Assembly: GCF_000526335.1 (NCBI RefSeq)
Contig: NZ_JAFW01000001.1
Location: 1,116,001 to 1,180,000, forward strand
Source of the DNA: Arthrobacter sp. 31Y
Lineage (GTDB): Bacteria; Actinomycetota; Actinomycetes; Actinomycetales; Micrococcaceae
Direction: 5' to 3'
Length of the DNA: 64,000 nt
Part shown: positions 2,949 through 62,758 of the stretch, in pieces
Numbering within the stretch: the first letter of the stretch is position 1
Layout: the number at the start of each line of letters is the position of its first letter
Translations under genes and position numbers: made by a program
The notes under the pieces: generated by a model
The model's database searches: none
What the model was told of the DNA's origin: nothing
What the model saw: only the letters and a program-made list of their open reading frames with translations

Positions 2949-4121
2949 ATGCTCGGATCCCCCAAACTTCGCAGGACCCTGGCCGTCATCGGCGCGGCCG
3001 CAGCCGTTCCTTTAGTACTTGCCGGCTGCACTGACAACACCAAGACCACGGGTGCCGCAGACGGCCCCATCCAGGTCAGCAGCACCGCCAACGAATGCAA
3101 GGTGTCCACGGGCACCGCGCCCAGCGGCAACCTTACTTTCGCCGTGAAGAACGAAGGCACGGAAGTCACCGAGTTCTACCTTCTGGCCGAAGACGGTCTG
3201 CGGATCCTGGGAGAAGTGGAGAACATCGGGCCCGGCATCACCCGCAACCTGGTGGTCACCGCTCCGGCCGGCAAGTACAACACGGCCTGCAAGCCGGGCA
3301 TGCAGGGCGAAGGCATCCGCGCGTCCTTTGAGGTCACCGAATCCGGTAACAAGCCCAGCGTCGACGCCGACTTCCAGAAGCTCCTGGACACGGGATCCCA
3401 GCAGTACGTGGCCTACGTCAAGGACCAGACCGAGCAGCTCATTGTGGGCACCAAAGCCTTCGCCGATGCGTTCGCCGCCGGTGATGCCGCCAAGGCCCGT
3501 GAGCTCTACGCTTCCACCCGCATGCACTGGGAGCGGATCGAACCTGTAGCTGAGTCCTTCGGCGACCTGGACCCCAAGCTGGATGCCCGCGAGGCGGACC
3601 TTGAACCCGGACAGGAATGGACCGGCTGGCACCGTGCGGAGAAGGACCTCTTCCCGCCTGCGGAATACACGGCCATGACGCCGGCCGAGCGCACCGCCAT
3701 CTCCACACAGCTGGTTGCAGACACCGAAGACCTCGTCACCCGCACCCGCACGGTTGAACTCACTCCGGACAAGCTCGGCAACGGCGCCAAGGAACTCCTG
3801 GACGAAGTTGCCACCGGCAAGGTCACAGGCGAAGAGGAAATCTGGTCCCACACGGACCTGTGGGATTTCCAAGCAAACGTGGACGGTGCACGCATCGCTT
3901 TTGAGAACCTGAAGCCGGCGCTTGAGCAGAAGGACCCCGAGCTCGCCAAGTCCTTGGACGAGAAGTTCACGGCGCTCCAAACCGAGCTCAAGAAGCATGC
4001 CAAGGGCGACGGCTTCGTGTTCTACAACGAGCTGACCCAGGACCAGGTCCAGCAGCTTGCTGCCTTGGTCGATTCGCTGGGTGAGCCCCTCTCCAAGCTC
4101 ACCGCAGCCGTGGTGCTGTGA
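2949..4121 (+). CDS. efeO: EfeO, iron uptake lipoprotein with cupredoxin and M75 domains
   Basis: A 390-residue exported protein. The N-terminus is a lipoprotein signal peptide ending in the lipobox LAGC (Cys at about 26). A cupredoxin-like region follows (about 35-135, with LTFAVKNEGTEVTEFYLL). The rest is a helical peptidase-M75 domain carrying the HxxE motif (HWERIE near 193), the proposed metal site. EfeO is thought to bind iron outside the membrane and pass it to EfeU. It follows efeU after 62 bases and overlaps efeB by four bases (GTGA), so the three are co-translated. Family assignment is firm. Confidence 0.94.
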   Translation: MLGSPKLRRTLAVIGAAAAVPLVLAGCTDNTKTTGAADGPIQVSSTANECKVSTGTAPSGNLTFAVKNEGTEVTEFYLLAEDGLRILGEVENIGPGITRNLVVTAPAGKYNTACKPGMQGEGIRASFEVTESGNKPSVDADFQKLLDTGSQQYVAYVKDQTEQLIVGTKAFADAFAAGDAAKARELYASTRMHWERIEPVAESFGDLDPKLDAREADLEPGQEWTGWHRAEKDLFPPAEYTAMTPAERTAISTQLVADTEDLVTRTRTVELTPDKLGNGAKELLDEVATGKVTGEEEIWSHTDLWDFQANVDGARIAFENLKPALEQKDPELAKSLDEKFTALQTELKKHAKGDGFVFYNELTQDQVQQLAALVDSLGEPLSKLTAAVVL

Positions 4122-5545
4122 GCGGCTGCCCCTTCGGGCACACCGACGAGCCCGTCGACAAAGACCCTGACCTTAGCCGGCAGGACACTACGGGTGAGTC
4201 TGCCGCCGTCGTAACTTCCCGGGAAGCGGCCGACGGCGGTACAGCAGCTGCCGCTGAAAGCCGCCGCACGGGCGTCTCCCGACGCGGCCTGCTCTCGCTC
4301 GCGGGAGTGGGCGGCGCGGGTGCGGTTGCCGGTCTGGCTGCCGGGTTCCTGGGACATGACGCGTTGTCTGCCGCCGCTGCATCCCCCGCGGACACCAGCA
4401 CCGGCGAAGCCGTGGTTCCATTCTTTGGCGACCATCAGGCCGGTATCACTACTCCGGCCCAGGATCGCCTGCACATGGCCGCTTTTGATGTCACCACCGG
4501 AGACCGCAAGGAACTCATCAAGCTCCTCAAGGACTGGACTGCCGCGGCCGAATCCATGACAACCGGCCTCCCCACTGGCACGACGGGCGCCGTAGACGGG
4601 CCGTACGATGCCCCGCCTGAAGACACCGGCGAAGCGTTGGATTTGGCGGCTGCGAAGTTAACGCTGACCTTCGGTTTTGGCGCGGGGCTGTTGGAGAAGG
4701 ACGGGAAGGCGCGCTTTGGTCTGGAGGGCCGCCGCCCGGAGGCCTTGATCGATCTTCCGCATTTCCCAGGGGATGATCTTCAGCCGGGCCGCACGGGTGG
4801 GGACATCGTCATCCAGGCCTGCGCTGATGATCCCCAAGTGGCAGTCCACGCTATTCGGAACCTTGCACGGATCGGCTTCGGCAAGGTCCGGGTCCGGTGG
4901 TCGCAGTTGGGCTTTGGACGCACGTCCTCTACGTCCAGGGCCCAGGTGACACCCCGGAATCTGTTCGGATTCAAGGACGGCACCAACAACCTCAAGGTCG
5001 AGGACAACGCCCTGCTTGATGAGCACGTCTGGGTAGGCGCCGGCTCCGCGGGCGAACAATGGATGAACGGCGGCAGCTACCTGGTGGCCCGCAGGATTCA
5101 GATGCACATTGAAATCTGGGATCGGACCTCCCTGCGCGAACAGGAGGGATTGATTGGCCGCACCAAGGGAGTTGGTGCTCCGTTGTCCGGCGGGGACGAG
5201 TTCAGCACCCCCGATTTCGCCATGACGGGCCGCAACGGCGATCCCCTGATTCCCATGGACTCACACATGCGTTTGGCCCACCCGGACCAGAACAACGGCG
5301 TGAGGATGCTGCGCCGTGGCTACAACTTCACGGATGGCTCGGACGGGCTGGGACACCTCGACGCCGGGCTGTTCTTCATTGCGTTCGTCAAGGATCCCCG
5401 AACCCACTACGTTCCCATGCAGCTGGCATTGGCCAAGAGCGACACCCTGTCCGTGGAGTACTTGAAGCACACCGGCTCGGGGCTCTTTGCGGTGCCTCCG
5501 GGCGTCCAGGCGGGCGGTTTCATCGGCGAGGGCTTGTTCGCCTAG
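4118..5545 (+). CDS. efeB: EfeB, Tat-exported Dyp-type heme peroxidase/deferrochelatase
   Basis: A 475-residue protein starting with GTG inside the efeO stop (GTGA overlap). An unusually polar N-terminal tail of about 50 residues precedes a twin-arginine signal (SRRGLLSLAG, Arg near 55-56) and a hydrophobic h-region. The mature part is a dye-decolorising peroxidase with the diagnostic GFKDGTNN motif (Asp near 287) and a C-terminal FIAFVKDP segment. In EfeUOB systems EfeB is a periplasmic peroxidase credited with oxidising iron or taking iron from heme; the physiological role is debated. The early Cys (SGCPFGH) is part of the cytoplasmic-facing tail, not a lipobox. Confidence 0.94.
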   Translation: MSGCPFGHTDEPVDKDPDLSRQDTTGESAAVVTSREAADGGTAAAAESRRTGVSRRGLLSLAGVGGAGAVAGLAAGFLGHDALSAAAASPADTSTGEAVVPFFGDHQAGITTPAQDRLHMAAFDVTTGDRKELIKLLKDWTAAAESMTTGLPTGTTGAVDGPYDAPPEDTGEALDLAAAKLTLTFGFGAGLLEKDGKARFGLEGRRPEALIDLPHFPGDDLQPGRTGGDIVIQACADDPQVAVHAIRNLARIGFGKVRVRWSQLGFGRTSSTSRAQVTPRNLFGFKDGTNNLKVEDNALLDEHVWVGAGSAGEQWMNGGSYLVARRIQMHIEIWDRTSLREQEGLIGRTKGVGAPLSGGDEFSTPDFAMTGRNGDPLIPMDSHMRLAHPDQNNGVRMLRRGYNFTDGSDGLGHLDAGLFFIAFVKDPRTHYVPMQLALAKSDTLSVEYLKHTGSGLFAVPPGVQAGGFIGEGLFA

Positions 5546-5569
5546 GCCTGGGCAGCGCAATGACGTTGA

Positions 5570-5613
5570 GAACCCGCTTTTCCGTTGTTGGTCAACCACG
5601 GAAAAGCGGGTTC
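5570..5613. repeat. Palindromic hairpin between convergent genes (family C, copy 1)
   Basis: Arms GAACCCGCTTTTCCGT and ACGGAAAAGCGGGTTC are perfect complements; a further four pairs lie near the loop. It lies between the ends of efeB (plus) and htpX (minus), so it could terminate both. A related sequence sharing its centre and right arm is at 39429-39470. Confidence 0.75.
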
Positions 5614-5630
5614 ACGACGTGTTTGGCTCT

Positions 5631-6500
5631 CTAGGAGAGTGGCCGCCCGGCCATCCGTTCCAGCCGGCTGATCCGTTCCTTCATGGGCGGGTGTGTGGAG
5701 AACATACGCCGCATGCCGCCGCCGCGGAACGGGTTGGCGATCATCAGGTGTGAGGCATTGACCAACCGCTGGTCCTGCGGGAGCGGCAACTGGCTGACCC
5801 CGGATTCGATCTTGCGCAGGGCTGAGGCGAGCGCCAGGGGGTCGCCGGTGAGCTCGGCACCGTCTTCATCGGCGTCGTACTCGCGGGTTCGGGAGATGGC
5901 CATCTGAATCAGTGAAGCCGCGAACGGCGCAAGCAAGGCCATGGCGATGGTGGCCAGCGGGTTGGCGTTGCGCCGGTCGCCGCTGCCGAAGATCAGCAGC
6001 ATCTGCCCCACGGAGGTGATGACACCGGCCACGGCAGCTGCAACGGACGACGTCAGGATGTCGCGGTTGTATACGTGCATCAGCTCATGACCCAGGACGC
6101 CCCTGAGTTCGCGGGCGTCCAGCAAGTGAAGGATGCCCTCGGTACAGCACACGGCAGCGTTCTTTGGATTGCGTCCTGTGGCGAAGGCGTTGGGTGTCAT
6201 GGTGGGCGAAAGGTAAATCCGCGGCATGGGTTTGTTGGCACGCACGGACAGCTCTCGAACTATCTGATACAGCTGCGGCGCCTGCGCCTCGGTGACGGGG
6301 TAGGCAGCCATGGAACGGATGGCGATCTTGTCGCTGTTCCAGTAGCCATATGCAGTGGTCCCAACACCGATCAACGCCATGATCCAGATGGGCGTGGTGC
6401 TGCGCGTCCCGGCCGCGATGATGGCGCCCAAACCCAACAACACCGCCCACAGCACACCGAAGAGCGCCGCGGTCTTGAGTCCATTGTTGTGTTTATGCAC
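5631..6500 (-). CDS. htpX: HtpX, membrane zinc metalloprotease
   Basis: A 289-residue M48 family protease of the inner membrane. Two N-terminal membrane helices (about 12-30 and 37-55) precede the catalytic domain, which has the zinc motif HELMH at 138-142. Two further hydrophobic segments follow (SSVAAAVAGVITSVGQMLLIF and ATIAMALLAPFAASLIQMAI), then EYDADEDGAEL, which carries the third zinc ligand. HtpX degrades damaged membrane proteins, working alongside FtsH. Length and topology match the family. The gene is transcribed toward efeB with a hairpin between them. Confidence 0.95.
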   Translation of the reverse strand: MHKHNNGLKTAALFGVLWAVLLGLGAIIAAGTRSTTPIWIMALIGVGTTAYGYWNSDKIAIRSMAAYPVTEAQAPQLYQIVRELSVRANKPMPRIYLSPTMTPNAFATGRNPKNAAVCCTEGILHLLDARELRGVLGHELMHVYNRDILTSSVAAAVAGVITSVGQMLLIFGSGDRRNANPLATIAMALLAPFAASLIQMAISRTREYDADEDGAELTGDPLALASALRKIESGVSQLPLPQDQRLVNASHLMIANPFRGGGMRRMFSTHPPMKERISRLERMAGRPLS

Positions 6501-6608
6501 GGTTGTTCTCGTCGCTTTCCTCGTCTTTGGCAGGGTTCTGTACGGATTAACGCCGACGCCGGCCGTCGTGTTCCGTTGCCAGCCTACGTCGGCGGGTGCC
6601 CGGCAGGG

Positions 6609-7880
6609 TCAGGGCACAGGGTGTTTGGCGTCGTAGGCGACGAATCCGGGCTGCATTCGTGAAGCCACCCATGCCAGGAGAATGCAAAGAAGTCCGCCAA
6701 GGAACAACACTCCGCCTTCACTGAGGAACTGGGTGACACCGCCGGCCAGCATGTCCCCCACCCGGGGTCCTCCGGCCACCACCACAATGAACACACCCTG
6801 GAGCCGGCCCCGCATGTGGTCCGGAGTGGCTGACTGGAGGATGGTGGTGCGGAAGACGGCGCTGATGGAGTCCGAGATCCCGGCGAGGGCACAGCACAGA
6901 GCAGCCGGGATCAGCCAGGCAGTGACGCCATCGCGGCCGGAATCCCTGGCGAGCAGCACCACCAGACCGAAGCCGGCAATGGAGGCACCCCAACCAATCA
7001 CCGACCACACCACGGCGCTGCCCTGCTTGCGGACCCTCCCCAGGGGCCCGGAAAACAGCCCGGCCAGGAAAGCACCCACGGCTGTGGAAGCGAGCAGCAC
7101 ACCCACGGTTGTTTCGCCGCCACCGATCATCACAGCCCCGATGGCTGGCATCAAAGCCCGGGGTTGGGCGCAGATCATGGCGATGAGGTCAATGATGAAG
7201 GTCATGCGAACGTTGGGCCGTGTCCCCAGGAACCGAAAGCCCTCCACCACGGAGCGCAGCCCTGGCCGCACGGCATCCTTGGACGGCGGCAGGGGCGGGA
7301 GTTTGAAGAGCCCCCACAGTGCGAAGGTAAAGCTGATGACATCAATGGTGTACGTCCAGCCGAATCCGATGGTGGCCACAAGGACGCCTGCCAGGAGCGG
7401 CCCGGCGGTCATGGACAGGCCAAACGTCAGCATGCTCAGGGCGTTGGCTGCGGGAAGCAGATCCTTGCGGACCAGCAGCGGAATGATGGCACTGCGGGCC
7501 GGGCCGTTGATGCCCTGGGCGCCGCTTTGAACGGCTACCAGCGCGTAGAGAAGCCAGATATTGCCGATTTCCAGCCACGCTTGCAAGGCCAATGCGGCCG
7601 TGGTGACCCACAGCACCAGCGAGGCGACGAGTGCAACCTTTCGGCGATCGTAGGCGTCCGAAACGGAGCCCCCGTAGAGCCCGGCAATGACCAGTGGCAC
7701 CAGAGCAAAGATGCCCAGGAGGCCCACGTAGAAGCTCTCCTGCGTGAGCCGATAGACCTCCAGGCTGACAGCCACCAAGGTCAGCTGGGTTCCGATGGCA
7801 GCCACGGAGGCCCCTAGCCAGAGCCGCCTAAAAGCGGGGCTCTCCTTTAACGGGGTGATATCTGCCAGTAGTTTCGCCAC
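6609..7880 (-). CDS. MFS transporter, EntS-like exporter type
   Basis: A 423-residue major facilitator protein with about 12 membrane helices. The loop after helix 2 carries GGSVSDAYDRRKVAL, the MFS motif A region. The opening ESPAFRRLWLGASVAAIGTQLTLVAV and the later ATPDHMRGRLQGVF segment are typical of the group containing enterobactin exporter EntS and related drug-efflux proteins. The substrate cannot be told from sequence. The iron genes 1-5 kb away make a siderophore link conceivable, but no siderophore synthesis genes are present. It diverges from the gene at 7971. Confidence 0.85.
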   Translation of the reverse strand: MAKLLADITPLKESPAFRRLWLGASVAAIGTQLTLVAVSLEVYRLTQESFYVGLLGIFALVPLVIAGLYGGSVSDAYDRRKVALVASLVLWVTTAALALQAWLEIGNIWLLYALVAVQSGAQGINGPARSAIIPLLVRKDLLPAANALSMLTFGLSMTAGPLLAGVLVATIGFGWTYTIDVISFTFALWGLFKLPPLPPSKDAVRPGLRSVVEGFRFLGTRPNVRMTFIIDLIAMICAQPRALMPAIGAVMIGGGETTVGVLLASTAVGAFLAGLFSGPLGRVRKQGSAVVWSVIGWGASIAGFGLVVLLARDSGRDGVTAWLIPAALCCALAGISDSISAVFRTTILQSATPDHMRGRLQGVFIVVVAGGPRVGDMLAGGVTQFLSEGGVLFLGGLLCILLAWVASRMQPGFVAYDAKHPVP

Positions 7881-7970
7881 CGTCCTACCTTAACGAGCAT
7901 TGCGGCAACCTCCCGCAACTATCCCTGGCTGCGGGAACGCTTGGTAGGCTCACCCCGGGAAGGAGTTGAC

Positions 7971-8768
7971 ATGCGCATGGAGCGTCGCTTGCTGTACCGT
8001 TCGGGGTTTTGGGAAATAGCCCGGCCACGCCATCCCCTCACGGCCGGGCACATCCTGATCCGGCTGTCCGATCCCTCCACCGAGTTCGCGCAGGCCTCAG
8101 CGTCCGACTGGCTCTTCTGCCACAACCTTGTTCGCGCCGCGCTCCATGACGTACTCGGGGCAACCCGCTTCGCGGTGATGTTCGCCCACCGTTGGCACCC
8201 GCTGGGCTCCGCCATCGGCGAGCCCGTGGCTGAGTCTTCAACTCCCACGTTCCACCTGTTCGGCCGCTGGGACGGAGAAACCACGACGCCGGGGGCTCAG
8301 CTTTCGTTGCCGGCCCACCGTCGCCTCGGGGAGCCTGATCACCCCCTGGAAGCTACCGATGCCGCAGTCCGTGAGGCGCTGCGACGGAGCCGATCCGAGT
8401 CTGCCGTGAGTTCCGGACCTCAGGCGGGTGACGCCGTCGTGCCCGTTTCTGACTTAGGTCCGCCCTTGTCTCACTCAGTTTCGCTGGCTCGGGCGGTGCA
8501 AACAGGACCCCGACATACCGTCATTGAAGCTGTCCGGTCTGTGGCGTCCGTTCGCGAGATCCTGCCGGCGGAACTGCTGGCAATGGGGGCTGTCCTGGCT
8601 GAGCTTCCCTTGGGTGGGGGCCTTAGTGGATTCAGTTGCCTGGCCTTGGAATCGGAGACAGCAGGTACTCCCCTGCGGGTGCACGCGCTGGGCCGGTCCG
8701 CCGCTGAAGAGGTCAATCCTCTGGAGGATCTGCTCCGTTCACCGGAAGTTAGCCTTGCCTTATTGTGA
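7971..8768 (+). CDS. Hypothetical protein
   Basis: A 265-residue protein. The ATG at 7971 has AAGGAG six bases upstream; a frame extension to 7941 does not. I do not recognise a family with confidence. The first 110 residues (RHPLTAGHILIRLSDPS, then FMFAHRWHPLG-like and STPTFHLFGRWDGE elements) have the order of strands seen in HIT-like nucleotide-binding proteins, but the HxHxH catalytic triad is absent. The C-terminal half is variable and Ser/Ala/Leu rich. No signal peptide or membrane helix is apparent. It ends 30 bases before the Fur-family gene and may share its transcript. Confidence 0.6.
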   Translation: MRMERRLLYRSGFWEIARPRHPLTAGHILIRLSDPSTEFAQASASDWLFCHNLVRAALHDVLGATRFAVMFAHRWHPLGSAIGEPVAESSTPTFHLFGRWDGETTTPGAQLSLPAHRRLGEPDHPLEATDAAVREALRRSRSESAVSSGPQAGDAVVPVSDLGPPLSHSVSLARAVQTGPRHTVIEAVRSVASVREILPAELLAMGAVLAELPLGGGLSGFSCLALESETAGTPLRVHALGRSAAEEVNPLEDLLRSPEVSLALL

Positions 8769-8783
8769 ACTCCTCAAAATAAG
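8759..8783 (+). promoter_or_regulatory. Possible Fur/PerR-type operator before the regulator-catalase pair
   Basis: An AT-rich stretch with inverted ends CTTATT and AATAAG (13-base spacer) lies 16 bases before the Fur-family start codon. It overlaps the stop codon of the preceding gene. AT-rich sites upstream of furA-type genes are known autoregulatory operators, but this one matches no strict consensus. Confidence 0.35.
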
Positions 8784-8798
8784 TGTTTCAATGAATGC

Positions 8799-9275
8799 AT
8801 GACAGATCACACAGCCGAGCAAGCAGAATGGGCAGCCGCCCTGCATGCCCACGGCCGGCGTGTGACCAAGCAGCGGCTGGCAGTACTCGCCGCAGTCCAG
8901 CACCATCCGCATTCCCCGGCAGAAGGCATTCTTGCCGCTGCCCGCACAGAGCTTCCTGAACTGACGGCGCAGTCCGTTTACGTAGTGCTCAGCGACCTCA
9001 CGGACCTGCAGATGCTGCGCCGCTTTGAACCTCCGCACTCCCCGGCTCTTTACGAAACCCGGGTGGGCGACAACCACCATCACGCCGTATGCATCAGCTG
9101 CGGCAAGGTGGAGGACGTGGATTGCGCCGTGGGCCACGCACCGTGCCTCACCCCGCACTGGGATGAAAATTCCAAGCCCATGACCATCCAGATTGCAGAT
9201 GTCCTGTACCAGGGCGTGTGCCAGGATTGCCAGTCCAAACAACAGCTTCCCGTAACTTCCGTAACTCAGAAATAA
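8799..9275 (+). CDS. Fur family transcriptional regulator, FurA/CatR-like
   Basis: A 158-residue metal-dependent regulator. The N-terminal winged helix includes [27 protein letters not shown] and a recognition helix near [21 protein letters not shown]. The C-terminal dimer/metal domain has the histidine-rich [17 protein letters not shown] and a CQDC pair for structural zinc. It ends 14 bases before a catalase gene, a common arrangement (FurA/CatR-catalase) in which the regulator senses peroxide and represses itself and the catalase. The peroxide role is inferred from this context. There is no clear ribosome site before ATG 8799, so translation may be leaderless. Confidence 0.88.
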
Positions 9276-9289
9276 GAAAAAGGAGAACA

Positions 9290-10771
9290 ATGACTGCCAT
9301 TTCAACAACTCAGTCAGGTGCCCCCGTTACGTCCGACGCGCACTCAAAGTCCGTCGGCGCTGACGGTGCCATCATCCTCACGGACCACTACCTGGTGGAA
9401 AAGCTTGCGCAGTTCAACCGCGAGCGGGTCCCGGAGCGTGTAGTGCACGCCAAGGGTGGCGGCGCTTTCGGTACGTTCAAGACCACCTCGGACGTTTCGG
9501 CCTACACCAAGGCTGCTTTCCTGCAGCCGGGTACCGAGACGGACATGCTGATCCGTTTCTCCTCCGTTGCAGGCGAGAACGGCTCTCCCGACACCTGGCG
9601 CGACCCCCGCGGTTTCGCTGTGAAGTTCTACACCTCCGAGGGCAACTACGACCTCGTTGGCAACAACACCCCCGTCTTCTTCATCCGCGACGGCATCAAG
9701 TTCCCGGACTTCATCCACTCCCAGAAGCGCCTCCCGGGCACCCACCTGCGTGACGCTGACATGCAGTGGGACTTCTGGACCCTCTCCCCCGAGTCCGCCC
9801 ACCAAGTCACCTGGCTCATGGGCGACCGCGGCCTCCCGGCTTCCTGGCGTGAAATGCAGGGCTACGGCTCGCACACCTACCAGTGGATCAACGCCGCCGG
9901 CGAGCGTTTCTGGGTCAAGTACCACTTCAAGTCCAACCAGGGCGTCAAGACCATCACCGGTGACCAGGCTGAGCAGCTTGCCGGCTCGGACGCGGACTTC
10001 TACATCCGCGATCTCCAGGAGAACATTGCCGACGGCAACTTCCCCTCCTGGGAACTGCACGTCCAGGTCATGCCCTACGAGGATGCCAAGACGTACCGCT
10101 TCAACCCGTTCGACCTCACCAAGGTCTGGCCGCACTCTGACTACCCGCTGATCCACGTGGGAACCATGGAGCTGAACAAGAACCCGGAGAACTACTTCGC
10201 GCAGATCGAGCAGGCCACCTTCGCGCCGTCGAACTTCGTACCGGGCATTGCCGCTTCCCCGGACAAGATGCTGCAGGCCCGCATCTTCTCCTACGCAGAT
10301 GCACACCGTTACCGCGTAGGCACCAACCACGCACAGATCCCGGTGAACCAGCCCAAGAACCAGGTGAACAACTACAGCCAGGATGGCCAGGGTCGTTTCC
10401 TGTTCAACTCCCCCTCCACCCCGGTGTACGCACCGAACTCGGTAGGTGGCCCGGCTGCTGTTGAGCCCACATCGCCGGCCGGTGGCTGGGAGAACGACGG
10501 CGAGCTCACCCTCTCCGCCCACACCCTGCACGCTGAGGACGACGACTTCGGCCAGGCCGGTACCCTGTACCGCGAGGTCTACGACGATGCCGCAAAGGCC
10601 CGTCTCCTGGACACCATCACCGGTGCCGTTGGCGGCGTGAAGCACGCCGACATCAAGGAACGTGCCATCCAATACTGGACCAACGTTGACTCCGAGCTCG
10701 GCGCCAAGCTCCGCGCCAACCTCGGTGCAGGCCAGACCGAGTCCGACGCCGAAGCAGCCAACAAGCTCTAA
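9290..10771 (+). CDS. katA: Monofunctional heme catalase
   Basis: A 493-residue clade-3-size catalase that splits hydrogen peroxide in the cytoplasm. Visible landmarks are the distal His in [12 protein letters not shown] (near 50), the distal Asn in [13 protein letters not shown] (near 124), and the proximal heme-ligand Tyr in [15 protein letters not shown] (near 333). Length is normal. The ATG at 9290 follows AAAAGGAGA; an in-frame extension into the upstream gene is not credible. It is co-transcribed with the Fur-family gene 14 bases upstream and is followed by a strong terminator. Codon use is highly biased (mostly C-ending), in keeping with strong expression. Confidence 0.97.
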
Positions 10772-10796
10772 GCGTCTTTGCTCTACGGCTTTCCAG

Positions 10797-10844
10797 GAAC
10801 ACCCCGTTGCGGATCTTCTTCGCGGCGGGGTGTTCTTTTGTTTT
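10797..10844 (+). terminator. Rho-independent terminator after catalase
   Basis: Stem GAACACCCCG pairs with CGGGGTGTTC and is followed by TTTTGTTTT on the plus strand, 25 bases after the catalase stop codon. Confidence 0.9.
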
Positions 10845-10901
10845 CCACATAGCTCATCCCTGCTATGGCTGGGCCGGTATTGCCGTACCTAGGATCCTTC
10901 T

Positions 10902-11537
10902 ATGAGCACATTCGAAGGCATCCCAACCGCCGCATTCCGTTTCTACGCCGAGCTTGAAGAGAACAACAACCGTGAGTGGTGGCTGGAGCATAAAGCCACG
11001 TACGACGCCGAGGTGAAGGAATCGCTGGTAGGCCTCCTTGCGGAGTTGGAGCCGCAGTTCGGGCCGGCAAAGATCTTTCGGCCCAACAGGGACGTCAGAT
11101 TCTCCCAGGACAAGTCGCCGTACAAGACAGCGCAAGGCGCCTTCGCTGCCGGGCAGGAGGGTGTTGGCTTCTATCTCCAGATCAGTGCGGACGGCCTACT
11201 GATCGGCGGCGGATACCACTCACATACGCCAGCCCAACTGGCACGTTTCCGGGCTGCCGTAGATGCTCCGGACAGTGGATTGGAGCTCCAGGGAATTGTT
11301 GATGCGGTAGCGGCGGCAGGCTTTGCCGTCGAGGGTGAAAAGCTTAAGACCGTTCCGCGGGGCTTCGACAAAGACCATCCACGCGCGGAGCTGCTCAAGC
11401 ACAAGTCCCTGTCAGCGAGCGTTGAGGTGGGTCAGCCGGAGTGGCTTTCCACCCCGGCAGCCAAGGACCATATCGCCGCCCGCTGGGAGGCGCTGAGGCC
11501 GCTGGTGGAGTGGGTCGGCGAGCATGCGGCGCCGTAA
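10902..11537 (+). CDS. DUF2461 (TIGR02453) family protein
   Basis: A 211-residue protein of the DUF2461 family. Its usual opening is present (FYAELEENNNREWWLEHKATY), as is the conserved core PNRDVRFSQDKSPYKT and a glycine-rich strand (GFYLQISADGLLIGGG). The C-terminal region FDKDHPRAELLKHKSL is also family-typical. Members are widespread, cytoplasmic and without assigned function. Length is normal. It stands alone after the catalase terminator and meets the amino-acid permease gene tail to tail. Confidence 0.85.
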   Translation: MSTFEGIPTAAFRFYAELEENNNREWWLEHKATYDAEVKESLVGLLAELEPQFGPAKIFRPNRDVRFSQDKSPYKTAQGAFAAGQEGVGFYLQISADGLLIGGGYHSHTPAQLARFRAAVDAPDSGLELQGIVDAVAAAGFAVEGEKLKTVPRGFDKDHPRAELLKHKSLSASVEVGQPEWLSTPAAKDHIAARWEALRPLVEWVGEHAAP

Positions 11538-11587
11538 GCGCATCTCCGTAGACCGGCCACGGGGCCACTCCTTCCGGGGTACACGCG

Positions 11588-11623
11588 AAAGCGCCCGGAA
11601 ACCTATGGCTCCCGGGCGCCTTT
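11588..11623. terminator. Bidirectional hairpin terminator
   Basis: Stem GCGCCCGG pairs with CCGGGCGC, flanked by AAA and TTT. It lies between the convergent DUF2461 and permease genes, so it could serve both strands. Confidence 0.6.
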
Positions 11624-11667
11624 CACAGCAGCATCAAACTGCCTTCTTACAGCGTGCTCACTAAGGC

Positions 11668-13221
11668 CTAGGCCTTGGTGTAGGAGTCTTCGTCCTCATC
11701 GCCTTTGGAGCGGACCGTTGTTGCACCGCCGTCAACGGAGGCCTTGGCCGCGGCGAACTTCTCGTTCAGCCGTGAGTGGCGCTGGCCGTAGGCGAAGTAG
11801 ATGCCCATGCCAATGACCAGCCAGATTGCGAAGAAGATCCAGGTTTCAACGGCAAGGTTGGTCATGAGGTAGAAGCAGAGCACTGCGGAGACCCAGGGCA
11901 GGACCTTGCCAAACGGGACGCGGAAGGCAGGCTTCAGGTCCGGACGCTTCTTCCGCAGCACCAGGATGCCCAAGCTCACCATTACGAACGCAGAGAGCGT
12001 TCCGATGTTGATCATTTCCTCGAGCAAGTCCACCTTGGTTACACCTGCCACTACGGCCACCGCTGCCCCGCAGATGATCTGCAGACGGGCCGGCGTGGAG
12101 CGCTTTTCGCTGGTCTTGGACAGTGAGCGTGGCAGGAGTCCGTCGCGGCTCATGGCCAGGACCACACGGGACAGGCCCATGAGCAGCACCATGATCACGG
12201 TGGTCAGGCCCACCAGGGAGCCGAACGCGATGACCTTGGCAGCGTCCGTATTGCCCACGGCCTCGAAGGCTGTTGTCAGCGTGGGGTTCTTCACCTCGGC
12301 CAATTGCGTGTAAGAGACCATGCCGGTCAGTGCGAGGGAGACCAGGATGTAGAGCAGCGTCACCACTGCCAAGCCACCGAAGATACCGCGGGGAAGGGTC
12401 TTCTGCGGGTTCTTGACCTCTTCGGCGGATGTCGCCACCACGTCAAAGCCGATGAAGGCGAAGAACACCAGTGCTGCACCGGCAAAGACACCGAGAGTTC
12501 CGTACTGCGCAGGAGCAGCACCGGTGAGGAAGCCGAAGAAGGACTGCTTCATGACGTCCGCGGCACCGGAATCGGTGGGTTCGGAGGCAGGAATGAAGGG
12601 GGTGTAGTTGGAGAACTTCACGTAGCTGAAGCCAACCACGATCACGAAGAGCACTACGGCGATTTTGATCAGGGTGAAGACGTTGCCGACGCGGGCGGAC
12701 AACTTTGTCCCCAGCACCAGCAGTACGGTGAAGATCGCGACAATGAGGAAAGCGCCCCAGTAGAGATCGATGCCGAAGACGCTGACTGACGGCGGCATGT
12801 CCACGCCCATCAAGCCAAAGACCGTACTGAGGTAGATGCCCCAGTACTTGGCGATCACGGCTGCGGCGGTGAAGAGTTCAAGGATGAGGTTCCAGCCGAT
12901 GATCCAGGCCAGGACTTCGCCCATGGTGGCGTACGTAAAGACGTAGGCGGAGCCTGCAACGGGAATCGCGGTGGCGAATTCGGCGTAGCACATGATGGCC
13001 AAAGCACACGTGACAGCGGCGATGGCAAAGGAGATGGTGACGGCGGGGCCGGCAAAGTTTGCAGCAGCCTTGGCTCCAACGGAGAAGATCCCGGCGCCGA
13101 CAGCAACGGCGACGCCCATGATCATCAAGTCCCAGGTACTGAGGCTGCGCTTCAGCTTTCGCCCGGGCTCGTCGGCATCGGCGATGGACTGCTCAATGGA
13201 TTTGGTCCTGAAAATGTTCAT
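11668..13221 (-). CDS. APC family amino-acid permease, cationic amino-acid transporter type
   Basis: A 517-residue inner-membrane permease with 12 or more hydrophobic helices. The opening helix (LMIMGVAVAVGAGIFSVGA) is the conserved unwound TM1 of the APC superfamily, and GFDVVATSAEEVKNPQKTLPRGI is the loop after TM6 typical of the CAT/YfnA group. The C-terminal tail is charged (KGDEDEDSYTKA). The exact substrate cannot be assigned. No amino-acid catabolic gene lies directly beside it. The ATG at 13221 has no strong ribosome site, but the N-terminal sequence is family-like. Confidence 0.88.
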   Translation of the reverse strand: MNIFRTKSIEQSIADADEPGRKLKRSLSTWDLMIMGVAVAVGAGIFSVGAKAAANFAGPAVTISFAIAAVTCALAIMCYAEFATAIPVAGSAYVFTYATMGEVLAWIIGWNLILELFTAAAVIAKYWGIYLSTVFGLMGVDMPPSVSVFGIDLYWGAFLIVAIFTVLLVLGTKLSARVGNVFTLIKIAVVLFVIVVGFSYVKFSNYTPFIPASEPTDSGAADVMKQSFFGFLTGAAPAQYGTLGVFAGAALVFFAFIGFDVVATSAEEVKNPQKTLPRGIFGGLAVVTLLYILVSLALTGMVSYTQLAEVKNPTLTTAFEAVGNTDAAKVIAFGSLVGLTTVIMVLLMGLSRVVLAMSRDGLLPRSLSKTSEKRSTPARLQIICGAAVAVVAGVTKVDLLEEMINIGTLSAFVMVSLGILVLRKKRPDLKPAFRVPFGKVLPWVSAVLCFYLMTNLAVETWIFFAIWLVIGMGIYFAYGQRHSRLNEKFAAAKASVDGGATTVRSKGDEDEDSYTKA

Positions 13222-13341
13222 AAAAATGCCACATTCTGGATGGGAGTGGTATAGGACTCATCAAGAATAGTGTCCGACCAATGGACGGCCATATTTATCC
13301 CAGATAGTGAGACGGTTCCTTAGACCTTGTGACCCGTGTGA

Positions 13342-13378
13342 CTGGTGTGACGGAAGCGCGTTGCCCCCGTCACACCAG
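13342..13378. terminator. Hairpin downstream of the DUF779 gene
   Basis: Perfect 12-base arms CTGGTGTGACGG and CCGTCACACCAG lie 10 bases beyond the DUF779 stop. There is no T run, so it may terminate weakly or protect the 3' end of the ald-adh-DUF779 transcript. Confidence 0.5.
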
Positions 13379-13388
13379 CCAAGTACCC

Positions 13389-13805
13389 CTAAAGGCTTGG
13401 CACGTCCCAGTCCATGAGGGTGGAACGGATCAGGAATCGCTTGCCCTCAGGTGACTCCACAGAGAATCCGCTACCGTGCCCGGGCACCACGTCAACCGTC
13501 AGGTGGGTGTGGGACCAATAGTTGAACTGTTCCTTGGACATCCAAAACTCGAGCGGCTGCGGCTCCCCTCCTGATCCAATATCGAACCTGCCAAGCAGGA
13601 CATCGGAGTCGCCGGTCAGGAACTCCCCCGCCGGGTAGCACATGGGTGCGGAGCCGTCGCAGCAGCCGCCCGACTGATGGAACATGAGCGGCCCGTGCTG
13701 ATCCCAAAGCTTGCGGAGCAGTTCCACGGACACCGCGGTGAGCGCCACCCGGGAGAAATCTTCCCCGGGCAGCGTCACCACGGCCTCCAAGCTGATGTTG
13801 TTCAT
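13389..13805 (-). CDS. DUF779 family protein of the alcohol/aldehyde operon
   Basis: A 138-residue cytoplasmic protein of the DUF779 family. It has the cysteine-rich QSGGCCDGSAPMCYP segment near residue 45 and a C-terminal SPEGKRFLIRS. DUF779 genes commonly accompany acetaldehyde dehydrogenases and alcohol dehydrogenases; the biochemical role is not known to me, though the clustered cysteines suggest metal binding. Its start codon overlaps the adh stop by one base (TGATG), so it is translationally coupled as the last gene of ald-adh-DUF779. Confidence 0.9.
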   Translation of the reverse strand: MNNISLEAVVTLPGEDFSRVALTAVSVELLRKLWDQHGPLMFHQSGGCCDGSAPMCYPAGEFLTGDSDVLLGRFDIGSGGEPQPLEFWMSKEQFNYWSHTHLTVDVVPGHGSGFSVESPEGKRFLIRSTLMDWDVPSL

Positions 13806-57994: not shown

Positions 57995-58247
57995 ACATCG
58001 ACTGTAGGTCTGGCCAGTTTTCGCCAGCAAAGGTCCGGAAACGCGAAGTCACCTAGGGAAACATTTCGTCACGAAGGCTTCATCGGCCTTGTTGCAGCGG
58101 GCTTCTTATGCAGGTTCATATTGTGGCTTTGTGGCCCCTTTCGTGACGCTCCTCTGTGGGATTGAACGTGTGACAAGACGGATTCGTCCAATCGTTGTAG
58201 CGTCGTTGAGGTATCGGCCGAGTCCGAGGACGCTATTTGGGGGAACG

Positions 58248-58628
58248 ATGACGCTCAACTGGAATATTGACACCGCAGGCACTCACGCCGTGCTGACCAC
58301 GGCGGCTTCTAATATCGACGCGCAGAACGAAGCGGCTAAGGCAGTGGGAACCGCCATTTCCGATGTTGGGGCCGTGCTCGGCACCGGTCTTGTAGCTCAG
58401 GCGCTCAATGAATTCGTAGAGCACTCACTGGCACTCAAGGTCAAGTTCATTGCCGGCAGGTCCGCAGCAATCGTCCAAGGAACCAACGACGCCCTCATGG
58501 CGTACGTTCAGGCAGACGGCGTCATGGCGCAGCAGGCCCAGGCCTCGGCCATCGCGGCCGGCAACAGCGCGTCCGACGGCGGCGCCATGCCACTGCGGGC
58601 AGGTCACCGCCCGGCGGAGCTTGGCTAA
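58248..58628 (+). CDS. Small helical WXG100/DUF6507-like partner protein
   Basis: A 126-residue, mostly helical protein (NWNIDTAGTHAVLTTAASNIDAQ, then VGAVLGTGLVAQALNEFVEHSLALKVKFIAGRSAAIVQG). Length and helical pattern are those of type VII secretion small partners, but no WXG motif is present; it most resembles the actinobacterial DUF6507 group. It has no signal peptide. ATG 58248 has GGGGGA upstream. It ends nine bases before the toxin gene, so the two are surely co-transcribed. A chaperone or co-secretion role is inferred. Confidence 0.65.
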   Translation: MTLNWNIDTAGTHAVLTTAASNIDAQNEAAKAVGTAISDVGAVLGTGLVAQALNEFVEHSLALKVKFIAGRSAAIVQGTNDALMAYVQADGVMAQQAQASAIAAGNSASDGGAMPLRAGHRPAELG

Positions 58629-58637
58629 AGGGACACC

Positions 58638-60821
58638 ATGACTACCTTCAACGAGATTTGTGTAGCACCAGGGGGTGGGGTCCCGGGCCTCGACCTCACA
58701 GCGTTGCCGGTGATACCCAACCCGGAAGCTTTGGACGCACATGCTGCTGCCCTTTCAACTGCCGGGGCGAAGTATGAGGCGTCAGTTCAGGTCACAGCCT
58801 CGGGATGGAACGCCTTGGCCGGGACATTCGATACACCCGAGAAGCCACAGCTTCTGTCGGCCTTTTCCCCAGTTACCACCATGGCGGATGATCTCAATAG
58901 CGGCGTTTCAATGGTCGCTTCTGCCCTGTCGGTTTTCGCTGCCGCTTGCCGCGACATCAAAACGAGAAGCGACGCCCTGAGGAGCGATTCCGGAAACCTC
59001 AGTTCACGCATTGAGCTCAAGGGCGACGAGTGGGCCACCGCTCCTGAGCTCGTTAGTGAGCAGAACCGGCTGCTCGCTGAACTTAACAACATCAAAGCCC
59101 GGTTCATGGAAGCCGAGCAGGACTGTGCCAATAAGATCGCTGCCCAGTACGGCGGAACACATTATGTGAACATCAACGATTCGCAGGCGAAGCCGGATGG
59201 ATCCAACGTTCATGCTGTTGATGCCGGGACTTTGGATGCATTGGGCGCACAAGGTGATCTCCCCTGGGGCGCACCCGTGGATCGGGCCAGACTTCGGGGC
59301 TTGATGGGTGCTGGGCAGGGCCTGTTGGACTCGGGGTGGGAGTTGGTGGGCGGCGCCTACTCATTGACTCCGTTGTCGCTGGCGTGGAAACCCGAGATTA
59401 AGGAATTGGGCCTCACCACCCAAAATTTCGGTGACGCCTGGAGTGGTGTGGGCAGCATGCTCTGGAACGTGGGCATGTTTGTAGCCCCTGGCATCTGGCT
59501 GGACCGGGCAATCACAGGGAAGCAGGAGGAACAGGACGCTGCGGCTAAGCAGTTGGGAAAGGTTCTTCCGGACTTATTCCAGGCGGACGCATGGTCAAAG
59601 GGCGAATGGGAATATGCCCTGACCCGCAACTCAGCGGATGTTGGCGCCTTCGTTGTCTCCTTCGGTACGGCTGGCGTCCTGAAAGCCGGATCCCTCGCTG
59701 AACGACTGGGTCTGCGTCTCGCCAGTGCGGGTAACCTGGCAAGTCTGCCCGGCACACTGCCAGGCCTTGCCAAACTCGGAGAACTCCGGTCAGTCACGGT
59801 AGCCAAGATCACTGACGTGATGACTACGGTCAAGGTTGTCACCTGGGAGAGCCTGATCAAACCACCGTTGCAGGGATCCGCGAACCTCCTTAATCACCTC
59901 GACGACGGTGCTGGCGCAGTCCGTGTAGCGGATGGCATCTCCGGGGTGGGCCGTGGTCCTTTGGGCGGTCTGGCAGAGGAGGTTCTTCACGGCATCGACC
60001 GCCTGGACCAGGCCGCCTACCGTCCCCCGGCGATGGGCACCCTCGGCAGAGCCGCGGAGCATCACGAAGTCATCGCCCAACTCAAACCTTCGCCGCTCCA
60101 CGATGCCTCGAACCCTGCAGTGCAGCAAGTGGTTCGTGTCCCCGATTCCATGGTTCCCGGACCCAGGACACCCTGGACCAAAGTCACCGAAGGCTTCGCA
60201 CCCAACACCGAATACCGGGTGCCCGGCCGCGGTACCTTCATTACGGATGCGAACGGGACCATCAAAGAAGCTGTCATCACCAAGGTCAAGGACAAACTGA
60301 ACCCTGACCTGAACAACCCGCTGCCGGACATGACGTACAAGGTGGAGGGCGTCAAAGGTGACGTGACGTTCAAGACCAATGGAGACGGACATACGGAACA
60401 CGTCAAGGTGGAGGGGCTCGAACTCGGGGACGGCCAAAGGTCCCCATACATCCAAGGACAGGTCGGCAGGGAATCAATGGCCGAGATAGGCGACTGGGAT
60501 CCCGACGTCGTTCCACCCGACTACGACGGCGGCCACCTCATCGCGCGACTCTTCGACGGAATCGGCGAACGCATCAACACCGTTGGCATGCTAAAGGAAC
60601 TGAACCGAAGCTCCGTTAACCGGAAGAACTTCTACAGGATAGAGATGCAGCTCCGCGACAAGTTGCTCGAAGTACCGCCGCCTAGGATTAATTTGCAGAT
60701 TGACGTCCTGCGACGACCTTCCATGAAAACACCCGAGAAGTTCATCGTCCAAGCGTGGGCCGACGGCCAAGGTTTCGTAGATGTGACCTTCAAAAACATC
60801 GTAGAAAGAGGAACGCAATGA
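58638..60821 (+). CDS. Polymorphic toxin with C-terminal DNA/RNA non-specific endonuclease domain
   Basis: A 727-residue toxin. Residues about 1-175 are helical (SGWNALAGTF, ALRSDSGNLSSRIELKGDEW, LLAELNNIKARFMEAEQDC), like LXG/WXG-type secretion domains. The middle (about 255-345) is Gly/Ala-rich and partly hydrophobic. A pre-toxin linker, NTEYRVPGRGTFITDANG, starts near 523. The C-terminal nuclease has DGGHLIARLF at 630-639 (His633 the likely catalytic base) and LNRSSVNRKNFYRIE at 655-669, as in the endonuclease-NS-2 family of YeeF-type toxins. It overlaps the first immunity gene by four bases (ATGA). No secretion machinery genes are in view. Confidence 0.85.
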   Translation: MTTFNEICVAPGGGVPGLDLTALPVIPNPEALDAHAAALSTAGAKYEASVQVTASGWNALAGTFDTPEKPQLLSAFSPVTTMADDLNSGVSMVASALSVFAAACRDIKTRSDALRSDSGNLSSRIELKGDEWATAPELVSEQNRLLAELNNIKARFMEAEQDCANKIAAQYGGTHYVNINDSQAKPDGSNVHAVDAGTLDALGAQGDLPWGAPVDRARLRGLMGAGQGLLDSGWELVGGAYSLTPLSLAWKPEIKELGLTTQNFGDAWSGVGSMLWNVGMFVAPGIWLDRAITGKQEEQDAAAKQLGKVLPDLFQADAWSKGEWEYALTRNSADVGAFVVSFGTAGVLKAGSLAERLGLRLASAGNLASLPGTLPGLAKLGELRSVTVAKITDVMTTVKVVTWESLIKPPLQGSANLLNHLDDGAGAVRVADGISGVGRGPLGGLAEEVLHGIDRLDQAAYRPPAMGTLGRAAEHHEVIAQLKPSPLHDASNPAVQQVVRVPDSMVPGPRTPWTKVTEGFAPNTEYRVPGRGTFITDANGTIKEAVITKVKDKLNPDLNNPLPDMTYKVEGVKGDVTFKTNGDGHTEHVKVEGLELGDGQRSPYIQGQVGRESMAEIGDWDPDVVPPDYDGGHLIARLFDGIGERINTVGMLKELNRSSVNRKNFYRIEMQLRDKLLEVPPPRINLQIDVLRRPSMKTPEKFIVQAWADGQGFVDVTFKNIVERGTQ

Positions 60822-61294
60822 CGACTCAAGAATCGGCCAAAGACCCATTTGAGCAGGCGCGTGAGTACGAGCAAATCATCGCCGAGGCGGTGTGGTCCAT
60901 CCGTCCAACGGATGTGTCTTGGGATTCACTGGTGTATGTCCATAATCAAATAGGTGGGCTGGGCAGCTCCATCACCAAGATCTTCCATCAGGGAGCCGTG
61001 ATCGATCGTAGGAGCATCGTCAAAGAAGTCGCATTCACAGTCGACGATCTTCGAGAAGCAATGTACAAGCCTGGCAAGGGCTCTTGGCTTTCCATGACCC
61101 TGACCGTCACGCCAGCCGGAAATGGCTGGGAAGCCAGTTACAACTACACCGACAAACCGGTCTGGGAACTCGGCGATCCGGTCAATGACACCTACGCCCA
61201 GGAGCTGTACCTATTCCCCCGGGACGAGGAACACATCCCCGACTGGTTTAAAGAAGAAATGCGGGGTTCCACCTGGACCCCGGGCTCCGACTAG
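60818..61294 (+). CDS. YezG/DUF600-like immunity protein 1
   Basis: A 158-residue acidic cytoplasmic protein. ATG 60818 overlaps the toxin stop codon, so toxin and immunity protein are made together. The shared C-terminal block is SMTLTVTPAGNGWEASYNYTDKPVWELGDP, then AQELYLFPRDEEHIPDWFKEEM. This order matches the YezG/DUF600 immunity family that protects against YeeF-type nucleases. It is the most divergent of the four tandem copies in its N-terminal half. Pairing with the toxin is inferred from adjacency and family. Confidence 0.8.
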   Translation: MTTQESAKDPFEQAREYEQIIAEAVWSIRPTDVSWDSLVYVHNQIGGLGSSITKIFHQGAVIDRRSIVKEVAFTVDDLREAMYKPGKGSWLSMTLTVTPAGNGWEASYNYTDKPVWELGDPVNDTYAQELYLFPRDEEHIPDWFKEEMRGSTWTPGSD

Positions 61295-61305
61295 GACTTC
61301 CAAGA

Positions 61306-61782
61306 ATGACGCAAGGAACCACCTCCAAGGACACTTTCGAATCGACTCGAGAACTAGAGAGAACCATTGCGGAAGGACTTTGGACGGCACGGCCCCAGGA
61401 TTTAGCGTGGGACAGCTTTGCTTATGTATATATGGAGACCGGCGGTACGGGCGGCGCCATCGCAAAGCTCTACCGGGACGGCCTGGAGTTGGAACGCGCC
61501 CGTCCGCGAAAGGATGTACTCGTATCAGCTATGAAACTGCGGGAAGTTACCTACCAGTCTGGCAAGGGCGCGTGGCTGTCGATGACGCTGACAATCACCC
61601 CCACTGGCGACGGCTGGGAGACCAGCTACAACTACACCGACAAACCGGTCTGGGAACTCGGAGATCCAGGACCCAGTGCATACGTCCAAGAGCTGTACCT
61701 CTTCCCCCGGGACGAAGACCACATCCCCGACTGGTTCAAAGAAGAAATGAAGGGCGCCACCTGGACCCCGAATTCCGACTAG
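61306..61782 (+). CDS. YezG/DUF600-like immunity protein 2
   Basis: A 158-residue paralog of the preceding gene, starting exactly 488 bases after it. It opens MTQGTTSKDTFESTRELERTIAEGLW, has a variable middle (ETGGTGGAIAKLYRDGLELERARPRK), and ends with the near-invariant KPVWELGDP and ELYLFPRDEDHIPDWFKEEM. The 11-base gap before it recurs before the next copies, so the duplicated unit includes that spacer. There is no strong ribosome site; it may depend on re-initiation from the previous gene. Confidence 0.78.
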   Translation: MTQGTTSKDTFESTRELERTIAEGLWTARPQDLAWDSFAYVYMETGGTGGAIAKLYRDGLELERARPRKDVLVSAMKLREVTYQSGKGAWLSMTLTITPTGDGWETSYNYTDKPVWELGDPGPSAYVQELYLFPRDEDHIPDWFKEEMKGATWTPNSD

Positions 61783-61815
61783 GGCTTGCCAGAATGATGC
61801 AAGGAACCACCTCAC

Positions 61816-62262
61816 ATGACACTTTCGAAACAACTCGAGAGAACCATTGCGGAAGCGCTTTGGGCTGCGCGGCCAAACGACATCGAGTGGGACACCTTCG
61901 CATACGTCCGCTCAGAAGTAGGCGGAACAGCAAGTGCCATTGCTAAGGCCTACTTGGATGGCACCGAGATGAAGCGCAAGCACATCGACAAGAGCGTTGT
62001 CGTAGCGGCGCGGACGCTACGGGAGTTGATGTACAAGCCAGGCAAAGGCACCTGGTTTTCTATGACTCTGGGCATCACGCCAGCCGGCGATGGCTGGGAA
62101 GCCAGTTTCAACTACACGGAGAAGCCAGTCTGGGAGCTTGGTGATCCCGTCAACGACACTTTTGCCCAGGAGCTGTACCTCTTCCCCCGCGACGAGGAAC
62201 ACATCCCCGACTGGTTCAAGGAAGCATTGAAAGGCGCAACCTGGACCCCGGGCTCCGACTAG
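61816..62262 (+). CDS. YezG/DUF600-like immunity protein 3, N-terminus altered by frameshift
   Basis: A 148-residue paralog. The start expected by alignment is ATG 61794, but relative to copies 2 and 4 eight bases are missing just after ACTTTCGAAACAACTC (near 61830-61840). The ancestral start is therefore out of frame with the body. An ATG created in the other frame at 61816 restores translation (MTLSKQLERTIAEALW), costing about ten residues. The body is intact and conserved (KPVWELGDP, ELYLFPRDEEHIPDWFKEAL). It may be a shortened working gene or an early pseudogene. Confidence 0.72.
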   Translation: MTLSKQLERTIAEALWAARPNDIEWDTFAYVRSEVGGTASAIAKAYLDGTEMKRKHIDKSVVVAARTLRELMYKPGKGTWFSMTLGITPAGDGWEASFNYTEKPVWELGDPVNDTFAQELYLFPRDEEHIPDWFKEALKGATWTPGSD

Positions 62263-62272
62263 GGCTTCCAGA

Positions 62273-62749
62273 ATGACGCAAGGAACCACGTCACGGGACA
62301 CTTTCGAAACAACTCTAAAACTCGAGAGAACCATTGCGGACGGACTTTGGGCCGTTCGGCCCCAAGACATCCAATGGGATGAGTTTGCATATGTTCGCTC
62401 CGAAATCGGAAGCAGGGCAGGCTCCATCGCAAGGGCCTACGTAGCCGGCGCCGAGGTGAAACGCATCCACGTTGACAATAACGTTCTCATAGCAGCCCGG
62501 ACGCTTAGGGACGTGATGTACCGTCCCAATCGGGGCACATGGTTCTCCATGACCCTCAAAGTCACTCCCAAAGGAGACAGCTGGGAAGCCGACTACAACT
62601 ACACAGAAAAGCCCGTCTGGGAACTCGGCGAACCGGTCACCGACACGTACGCCCAAGAGCTATACCTCTTCCCCCGCGACGAGGAACACATCCCCGACTG
62701 GTTCAAAGAAGAAATGAAGGGCGCTACCTGGACCCCGGAGGATGCCTAA
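62273..62749 (+). CDS. YezG/DUF600-like immunity protein 4
   Basis: A 158-residue paralog, opening MTQGTTSRDTFETTLKLERTIADGLW and ending KPVWELGEP, ELYLFPRDEEHIPDWFKEEM. Its middle (SRAGSIARAYVAGAEVKRIHVDNN) is distinct from the others. It ends nine bases before the stop of the convergent sirB gene, with no terminator between them. Four diverged copies behind one toxin suggest that the extra copies may answer to toxin variants of other strains; that is inference. Confidence 0.78.
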   Translation: MTQGTTSRDTFETTLKLERTIADGLWAVRPQDIQWDEFAYVRSEIGSRAGSIARAYVAGAEVKRIHVDNNVLIAARTLRDVMYRPNRGTWFSMTLKVTPKGDSWEADYNYTEKPVWELGEPVTDTYAQELYLFPRDEEHIPDWFKEEMKGATWTPEDA

Positions 62750-62758
62750 CCGCTGTGG

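What the first reader, a model, noticed from the sequence alone, without database searches (positions are those of the whole stretch)
58248..62749. Compact toxin-immunity island: small helical partner, LXG-like nuclease toxin, four immunity paralogs
Seen in sequence: a 126-residue helical protein, a 727-residue protein ending in a DGGHLIA nuclease motif, and four tandem related genes, all co-directional with 9-11 base gaps or ATGA overlaps (33 bases before the shortened third copy). Known: YeeF-YezG in Bacillus pairs an LXG toxin of the non-specific endonuclease type with a DUF600 immunity protein. Inference: this is an actinobacterial counterpart in which the small partner lacks WXG and the immunity gene has been amplified. 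No ESX or other secretion genes are in the window, so the export route is open.
Basis: partly seen in the sequence, partly recalled or inferred. Interest (0 to 1): 0.8.

Follow-up and report, generated by a model that had tools for sequence, protein, structure and literature searches.

The report
Actinobacterial EsaD/EsaG-like toxin and immunity array
A soil actinobacterium carries a compact gene island for a predicted DNA/RNA-cutting toxin, a small export partner and four related protective genes; it closely parallels a weapon known from Staphylococcus and Bacillus, but here it appears tied to the mycobacterial kind of protein export machine.

The parts
57995..62758 (.). Island: segment between cysI and sirB that is absent from fetched non-carriers
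   Evidence: 6 of 6 strong carriers have it between cysI and sirB; 8 of 8 fetched non-carriers have cysI and sirB 135-153 bases apart
58248..58628 (+). S: DUF6507 small partner, 126 aa
   Evidence: PF20117 E 3.2e-18; co-occurs with EccC
58503..58517 (+). YVQAD in S (residues 86-90), YxxxD-type export motif
   Evidence: column is YxxxD in 10 of 12 and YxxxN in 2 of 12 DUF6507 members; motif definition from PMC5311947
58638..60821 (+). T: polymorphic toxin, 727 aa
58638..59627 (+). T residues 1-330, N-terminal (presumed delivery) region related to other T7SS-linked toxins of the genome
   Evidence: 27.8% over 370 columns to the TNT-toxin N-terminus (E 1e-27) and 27% over 256 to the L017 toxin (E 2e-19), database of 18 loci; model confidence low here
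60240..60800 (+). T residues 535-721, EsaD-like nuclease domain
60525..60545 (+). DGGHLIA, with the putative catalytic His633
   Evidence: G631, G632, H633 invariant in the 10 toxins of A2; EsaD catalytic H528 per PMC9616950
60818..61294 (+). I1: EsaG/YezG-like immunity protein, frame overlaps the end of T (ATGA)
   Evidence: weak PF04634 E 0.016, below cut-off; fold of paralogue I4
60920..61132 (+). Approximate middle cassette of I1, found in another genome (G075) inside different ends
   Evidence: 94-100% nucleotide identity to the G075 copy there, against 45% and 69% in the two blocks before it
61306..61782 (+). I2: immunity paralogue
   Evidence: alignment A1; 94% nucleotide identity to a G136 copy, dN/dS 0.37
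61794..61846 (+). Out-of-frame relic of the I3 N-terminal start region (approximate)
61816..62262 (+). I3: immunity paralogue with shortened N-terminus
62273..62749 (+). I4: immunity paralogue; AlphaFold model pLDDT 90.8

Best explanation
The island is an antibacterial polymorphic-toxin system of the EsaD/EsaG (YeeF/YezG) kind, adapted to an actinobacterial ESX (T7SSa) secretion machine. S (DUF6507) pairs with the N-terminal part of T and supplies the YxxxD export motif, and the pair is exported by an EccC/EccD machine encoded 2.26 Mb away. In a competitor, the C-terminal nuclease of T cuts nucleic acid. In the producer, one immunity protein (most likely I1, whose frame overlaps T) binds the nuclease and blocks it, probably by prising the fold apart as EsaG does to EsaD. 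I2-I4 are a repertoire against other alleles of the toxin, generated by duplication and by shuffling of the variable middle between other ends. Shown by computation: the nuclease and immunity folds, the triad in other actinomycetes, co-occurrence of DUF6507 with EccC, mosaic immunity genes, presence/absence at one site. Inferred: secretion, S-T pairing, toxicity, the inhibition mode, which immunity protein is cognate, and the repertoire role.
Against: None of the window's own immunity proteins passes PF04634 (best 15.8 under 21.7), and a profile of 41 finds no PDB sequence at E<=10. Foldseek TM-scores for I4 are only 0.40-0.51 with rmsd near 10. The T N-terminus is modelled poorly (pLDDT about 25-51), so its fold is not established. 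In this genome eccC is in two overlapping frames near a run of six C, while 8 of 9 EccC genomes have one frame: export may be off in this strain, or this is an assembly error. In MYb23 the S start is frameshifted. Co-variation of toxin tip and first immunity protein is not shown: over 8 loci r is 0.68, but 0.22 (p 0.17) without the MYb23 locus, and the toxin N-terminus correlates about as well (0.57 and 0.21). 4 of 13 DUF6507 genomes lack EccC over the cut-off. No binding, toxicity or secretion data exist.
Confidence: 0.78

Rival explanations
1. The four immunity genes are plain dosage amplification against the strain's own toxin, not a repertoire against other alleles.
For: All four sit in one tandem array, and the three spacers between them are alike; the second half of the gene is conserved; co-variation of tip and first immunity protein is not demonstrated.
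Against: The four differ from each other by 27-37% in nucleotides, more than expected of recent copies kept for dosage; number and content of immunity genes differ between strains at the same site; the middle of I1 is found in G075 inside I4-like ends; G075 keeps two immunity genes although no toxin is left at the locus.
Confidence: 0.2
2. The island is decaying in this strain: the toxin is no longer exported and the immunity genes only protect against neighbours.
For: eccC is in two frames here; of six carriers, the two without EccC over the cut-off (G075, G172) have a missing or broken toxin frame while immunity genes remain; I3 has lost its original start.
Against: T is full length, with dN/dS of 0.11 (codons 1-555 against G136) and 0.13 (whole gene against MYb23); a run of six C is a common place for an assembly error (general knowledge); G109, G136 and G083 keep T in one frame and eccC in one frame.
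Confidence: 0.25
3. T acts inside the cell or as a scavenging secreted nuclease, and S-T-I is an ordinary toxin-antitoxin locus without T7SS.
For: No EccC-type gene lies in the window; 4 of 13 DUF6507 genomes lack EccC over the cut-off.
Against: An N-terminal part of about 360 residues related to other large toxins that sit with ESX-type small genes, DUF6507 linkage to eccC and the YxxxD column would have no evident role in such a locus; the closest solved structure is a T7SS effector.
Confidence: 0.07

Closest known systems
EsaD/EsaG of Staphylococcus aureus (T7SSb)
   Different: Here EccC/EccD of the T7SSa type; one DUF6507 gene upstream, where S. aureus has EsxB, EsxC, EsxD and the chaperone EsaE (PMC10653861, abstract and discussion read); no LXG match in T; island at a site away from the secretion locus
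YeeF/YezG of Bacillus subtilis
   Same: Toxin with a nuclease C-terminus and a conserved His (PMC7033585, one passage read) and a DUF600-type immunity protein
   Different: YeeF is an LXG toxin (as the finding states; PF04740 not found in T); a single immunity gene there is recalled, not checked
PE/PPE pairs of mycobacterial ESX systems
   Different: No PE or PPE family match; EspG was not sought; the model there is about pLDDT 30-51, and BAR-domain and designed helical bundles score as well or better
TNT-domain toxin beside the ESX locus of the same genome (L013)
   Same: DUF6507 gene directly upstream, related N-terminus (27.8%, E 1e-27)
   Different: C-terminus is TNT (PF14021), and it lies beside a WXG100-like gene, an ESAT6_3 gene and the ESX core

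Membership tests
EsaD/YeeF-type nuclease toxin (PF13930) | PF13930 over curated cut-off | tested here: met
   39 bits over 27
EsaD/YeeF-type nuclease toxin (PF13930) | Conserved His in DGGH and EsaD-like fold | tested here: met
EsaD/YeeF-type nuclease toxin (PF13930) | Nuclease activity and toxicity | not testable with these tools
   bench work needed
DUF600 / YezG-like immunity (PF04634) | PF04634 over curated cut-off | tested here: not met
   I1 15.8 under 21.7; I2, I3, I4 no match at E<=1; 10 of 41 members of A1 match at E<=0.1, best 0.01
DUF600 / YezG-like immunity (PF04634) | DUF600 fold | tested here: met
DUF600 / YezG-like immunity (PF04634) | Homology through intermediates that pass the cut-off | tested here: met
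   L022 26.0 and L025 31.1 over 21.7; both about 29% identical to I1 or I2, E 2e-19 and 1e-17 in a database of 18 loci
DUF600 / YezG-like immunity (PF04634) | Binds and inhibits the neighbouring nuclease | not testable with these tools
LXG toxins (PF04740) | LXG domain at the N-terminus | tested here: not met
   no match for T at E<=1; EsaD itself is a divergent LXG protein (PMC10653861), so a distant tie is not excluded
DUF6507 (PF20117) | PF20117 over curated cut-off | tested here: met
   66.8 bits over 25
WXG100 (PF06013) | PF06013 match for S | tested here: not met
   no match at E<=1
ESX (T7SSa) substrate | YxxxD/E motif in one partner | tested here: met
   YVQAD at S 86-90; 10 of 12 members YxxxD, 2 of 12 YxxxN
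ESX (T7SSa) substrate | ESX machine in the genome | tested here: met
   EccD, EccCa, EccCb over cut-offs, but eccC is in two frames in this genome; EccB, EccE and MycP were not sought
ESX (T7SSa) substrate | EccC-dependent secretion | not testable with these tools
   bench work needed

The most novel reading that the evidence does not exclude
An antibacterial ESX (T7SSa) effector class in non-mycobacterial actinobacteria, in which DUF6507 is the PE-like, YxxxD-bearing partner of a PPE-like toxin N-terminus, with interchangeable tips (EsaD-type nuclease, TNT, others) and immunity arrays that diversify by cassette shuffling. This would give a function to DUF6507 and show that the EsaD/EsaG arms race runs on both T7SSa and T7SSb.
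Probability: 0.5. Interest if true: 0.68.

Novelty: new variant of a known kind. Interest (0 to 1): 0.52.

Why it matters
In the papers listed, antibacterial T7SS toxins are mostly from Bacillota (T7SSb). A soil actinobacterium with an ESX-linked EsaD/EsaG-type pair would let one ask whether the mycobacterial kind of machine also delivers antibacterial toxins. DUF6507, a domain of unknown function with no paper in the library searched, gains a testable role. The arrays offer natural pairs of immunity genes that share a middle but differ in the ends, so specificity can be mapped without design.

Tried and rejected
LXG label: rejected for want of a PF04740 match. Co-variation of toxin tip and first immunity protein as proof of pairing: inconclusive; it used 8 loci (StoSoilB22 with its broken toxin, and G075 without one, were left out); for four of them the pair was linked only by equal contig length, and it is not known that the immunity gene is the first after the toxin. 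Taking I2 instead of I1 as the own partner gave a higher correlation (0.42 against 0.22; 7 loci), so the test does not favour I1. Residue-level mapping of variability on EsaG contacts: not done, no coordinates at hand. PPE-like fold of the T N-terminus: kept only as a lead, because of low confidence and many generic helical-bundle hits. An apparent second toxin tip in G109 is a tandem copy of its own tip and immunity gene, not a foreign tip. The promoter and terminator scan gave no more than chance. A profile search of A1 in PDB sequences gave nothing at E<=10. The literature searches (0 papers; 17 of 17 listed; 20 of 47 listed; 25 of 4,289 listed, unrelated subjects) showed no title on an actinobacterial EsaG/YezG locus, so absence from print is weakly tested. 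An LXG-labelled T7SS toxin of Amycolatopsis is already in print (PMC12691689, passages read).

Full report
Observation. The six frames, their lengths and spacings are exactly as described. S is DUF6507 (E 3.2e-18) and T carries PF13930 at residues 625-706 (E 1.1e-9, over cut-off). Nine comparisons with relatives gave dN/dS of 0.11-0.37. The third immunity copy is short because its original start region is out of frame and an internal ATG is used.

Export. None of the genome's seven FtsK/SpoIIIE matches is in the window, but the genome has EccD, EccCa and EccCb over NCBIfam cut-offs at 3.437-3.444 Mb, next to a WXG100-like gene (below cut-off), an ESAT6_3 gene (over cut-off), a DUF6507 gene and a TNT toxin. 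The genome has four DUF6507 places. The T N-terminus matches those of the TNT toxin (27.8% over 370 columns, E 1e-27) and of a second toxin at 3.695 Mb (27% over 256, E 2e-19) (E-values for 18 loci). In 198 genus genomes, 13 have DUF6507 and 9 have EccC over the cut-off; all 9 are among the 13 (Fisher 6.7e-13; kinship not corrected for). In 8 of the 9 a DUF6507 gene lies 3.6-3.9 kb from eccC on the opposite strand; in the ninth (G083) they are on different contigs. Of the four DUF6507 genomes without it (G075, G145, G170, G172), G170 has a short EccC frame (367 bits, 569 aa) 3.6 kb from its DUF6507 gene. Twelve DUF6507 members from fetched loci (five of them used as seeds, several closely related) all have Y at one column, followed by xxxD in 10 and xxxN in 2; YxxxD/E is the general ESX secretion motif, found in one partner of a heterodimer (PMC5311947, abstract and introduction text seen). 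Against this: in the window's genome eccC is in two frames (738 and 658 aa) that overlap near a run of six C.

Island and neighbours. Thirteen of 198 genus genomes match A1, six strongly. In those six (this genome, G075, G083, G172, G109, G136) the island lies between cysI and sirB. In eight close relatives without it, cysI and sirB are 135-153 bases apart. Contents vary: S-T-I x4 here; a shortened S fused to an immunity end, no toxin at the locus, and two immunity genes in G075; a broken toxin frame in G172 and a frameshifted S start in G083; a tandem copy of tip and immunity gene in G109. This T and the G136 T are 88.9% identical in nucleotides over codons 1-555 but 63.7% over the tip. The two carriers lacking EccC over the cut-off (G075, G172) are the two whose toxin is missing or broken; G109, G083 and G136 have T in one frame and EccC in one frame; this genome has T in one frame and a split eccC. 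Six genomes are too few for a test.

Mosaic immunity genes. Over 11 full immunity genes from the six loci (partial and fused copies and the second G109 copy left out), mean pairwise nucleotide identity is 57-66% in the first five blocks and 74-83% in the last four. I1 and the first full copy of G075 are 94-100% identical over about codons 35-106, but 45% and 69% in the two blocks before and 81-89% after; the same G075 copy matches I4 at 95% in the first block and at 96, 98 and 87% in the last three, but 46-69% between. A maximum-chi-square scan printed 34 of 55 pairs at p<=0.015 (200 shuffles each, no correction for many pairs; six of the 34 repeat others because the MYb23 copy equals I1). A shared change near codon 84-94 could be constraint, but an I1-like middle inside I4-like ends is best explained by recombination. 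This is the pattern reported for esaG: 12 copies in RN6390, three homology blocks, one copy annotated as a pseudogene (PMC9484751: abstract, results section 13 and discussion read). In EsaG, elements of the first half (around residues 56-80) contact the C-terminal fragment of EsaD (PMC9616950: passages, some from the abstract, and section 8 read), which fits a specificity role for the middle; that mapping is inference.

Mechanism. EsaG splits the EsaD nuclease into two fragments and disorders its metal finger (PMC9616950). With related folds here, the same mode is the default expectation, not a result. In S. aureus three small partners bind the EsaD N-terminal region for export (PMC10653861, abstract and discussion read); S is the natural candidate here.

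Verdict. It is a new, T7SSa-linked variant of a known toxin-immunity kind. Interest is moderate because the toxin, the immunity fold and the amplified array each have a described counterpart; what is new is their joint setting and a role for DUF6507.

Noticed in passing
L013 (G000:C1:3428000-3447999), about 13601-13794: eccC of the ESX locus is in two overlapping frames near a run of six C, while 8 of 9 EccC genomes have one frame; pseudogene, slippage or assembly error.
   Followed up: partly
L013 5345-8480: TNT-domain toxin (PF14021 E 3e-11) with DUF6507, ESAT6_3 and a WXG100-like gene upstream, next to the ESX core.
   Followed up: partly
L017 7297-10722: Second copy of the WXG100-like, ESAT6_3 and DUF6507 trio with a 794-aa toxin carrying a weak PF13930 match (E 0.0019, below cut-off) and further small genes downstream.
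   Followed up: partly
L013 385-708, 1128-1667 and 1873-2244: Distant relatives of the immunity proteins lie downstream of the TNT toxin (tblastn E 8e-7 to 4e-5).
   Followed up: no
L047 (G161:C7) 3236-13448: A 566-aa toxin-like protein with a DGGH nuclease tip, and an array of five relatives of the immunity proteins interleaved with repeated copies of other small gene families of about 144, 176 and 184 aa, about 5 kb from an EccC-like gene below the cut-off.
   Followed up: partly
L042 7392-7982 (P0040): In a P. aurescens genome S is fused to the end of an immunity gene: a deletion scar where the toxin lies in other carriers.
   Followed up: yes
L015 10806-15260: A 1484-aa FHA-FtsK protein (EssC/EccC-like, below cut-offs); many of the listed genus genomes have a like-scoring match of about 1490 aa. 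Role not examined.
   Followed up: no
L016 8419-10784: DUF6507 gene followed by a 657-aa protein with an Abhydrolase_8 domain (PF06259 E 4e-23): another DUF6507-paired large protein.
   Followed up: partly
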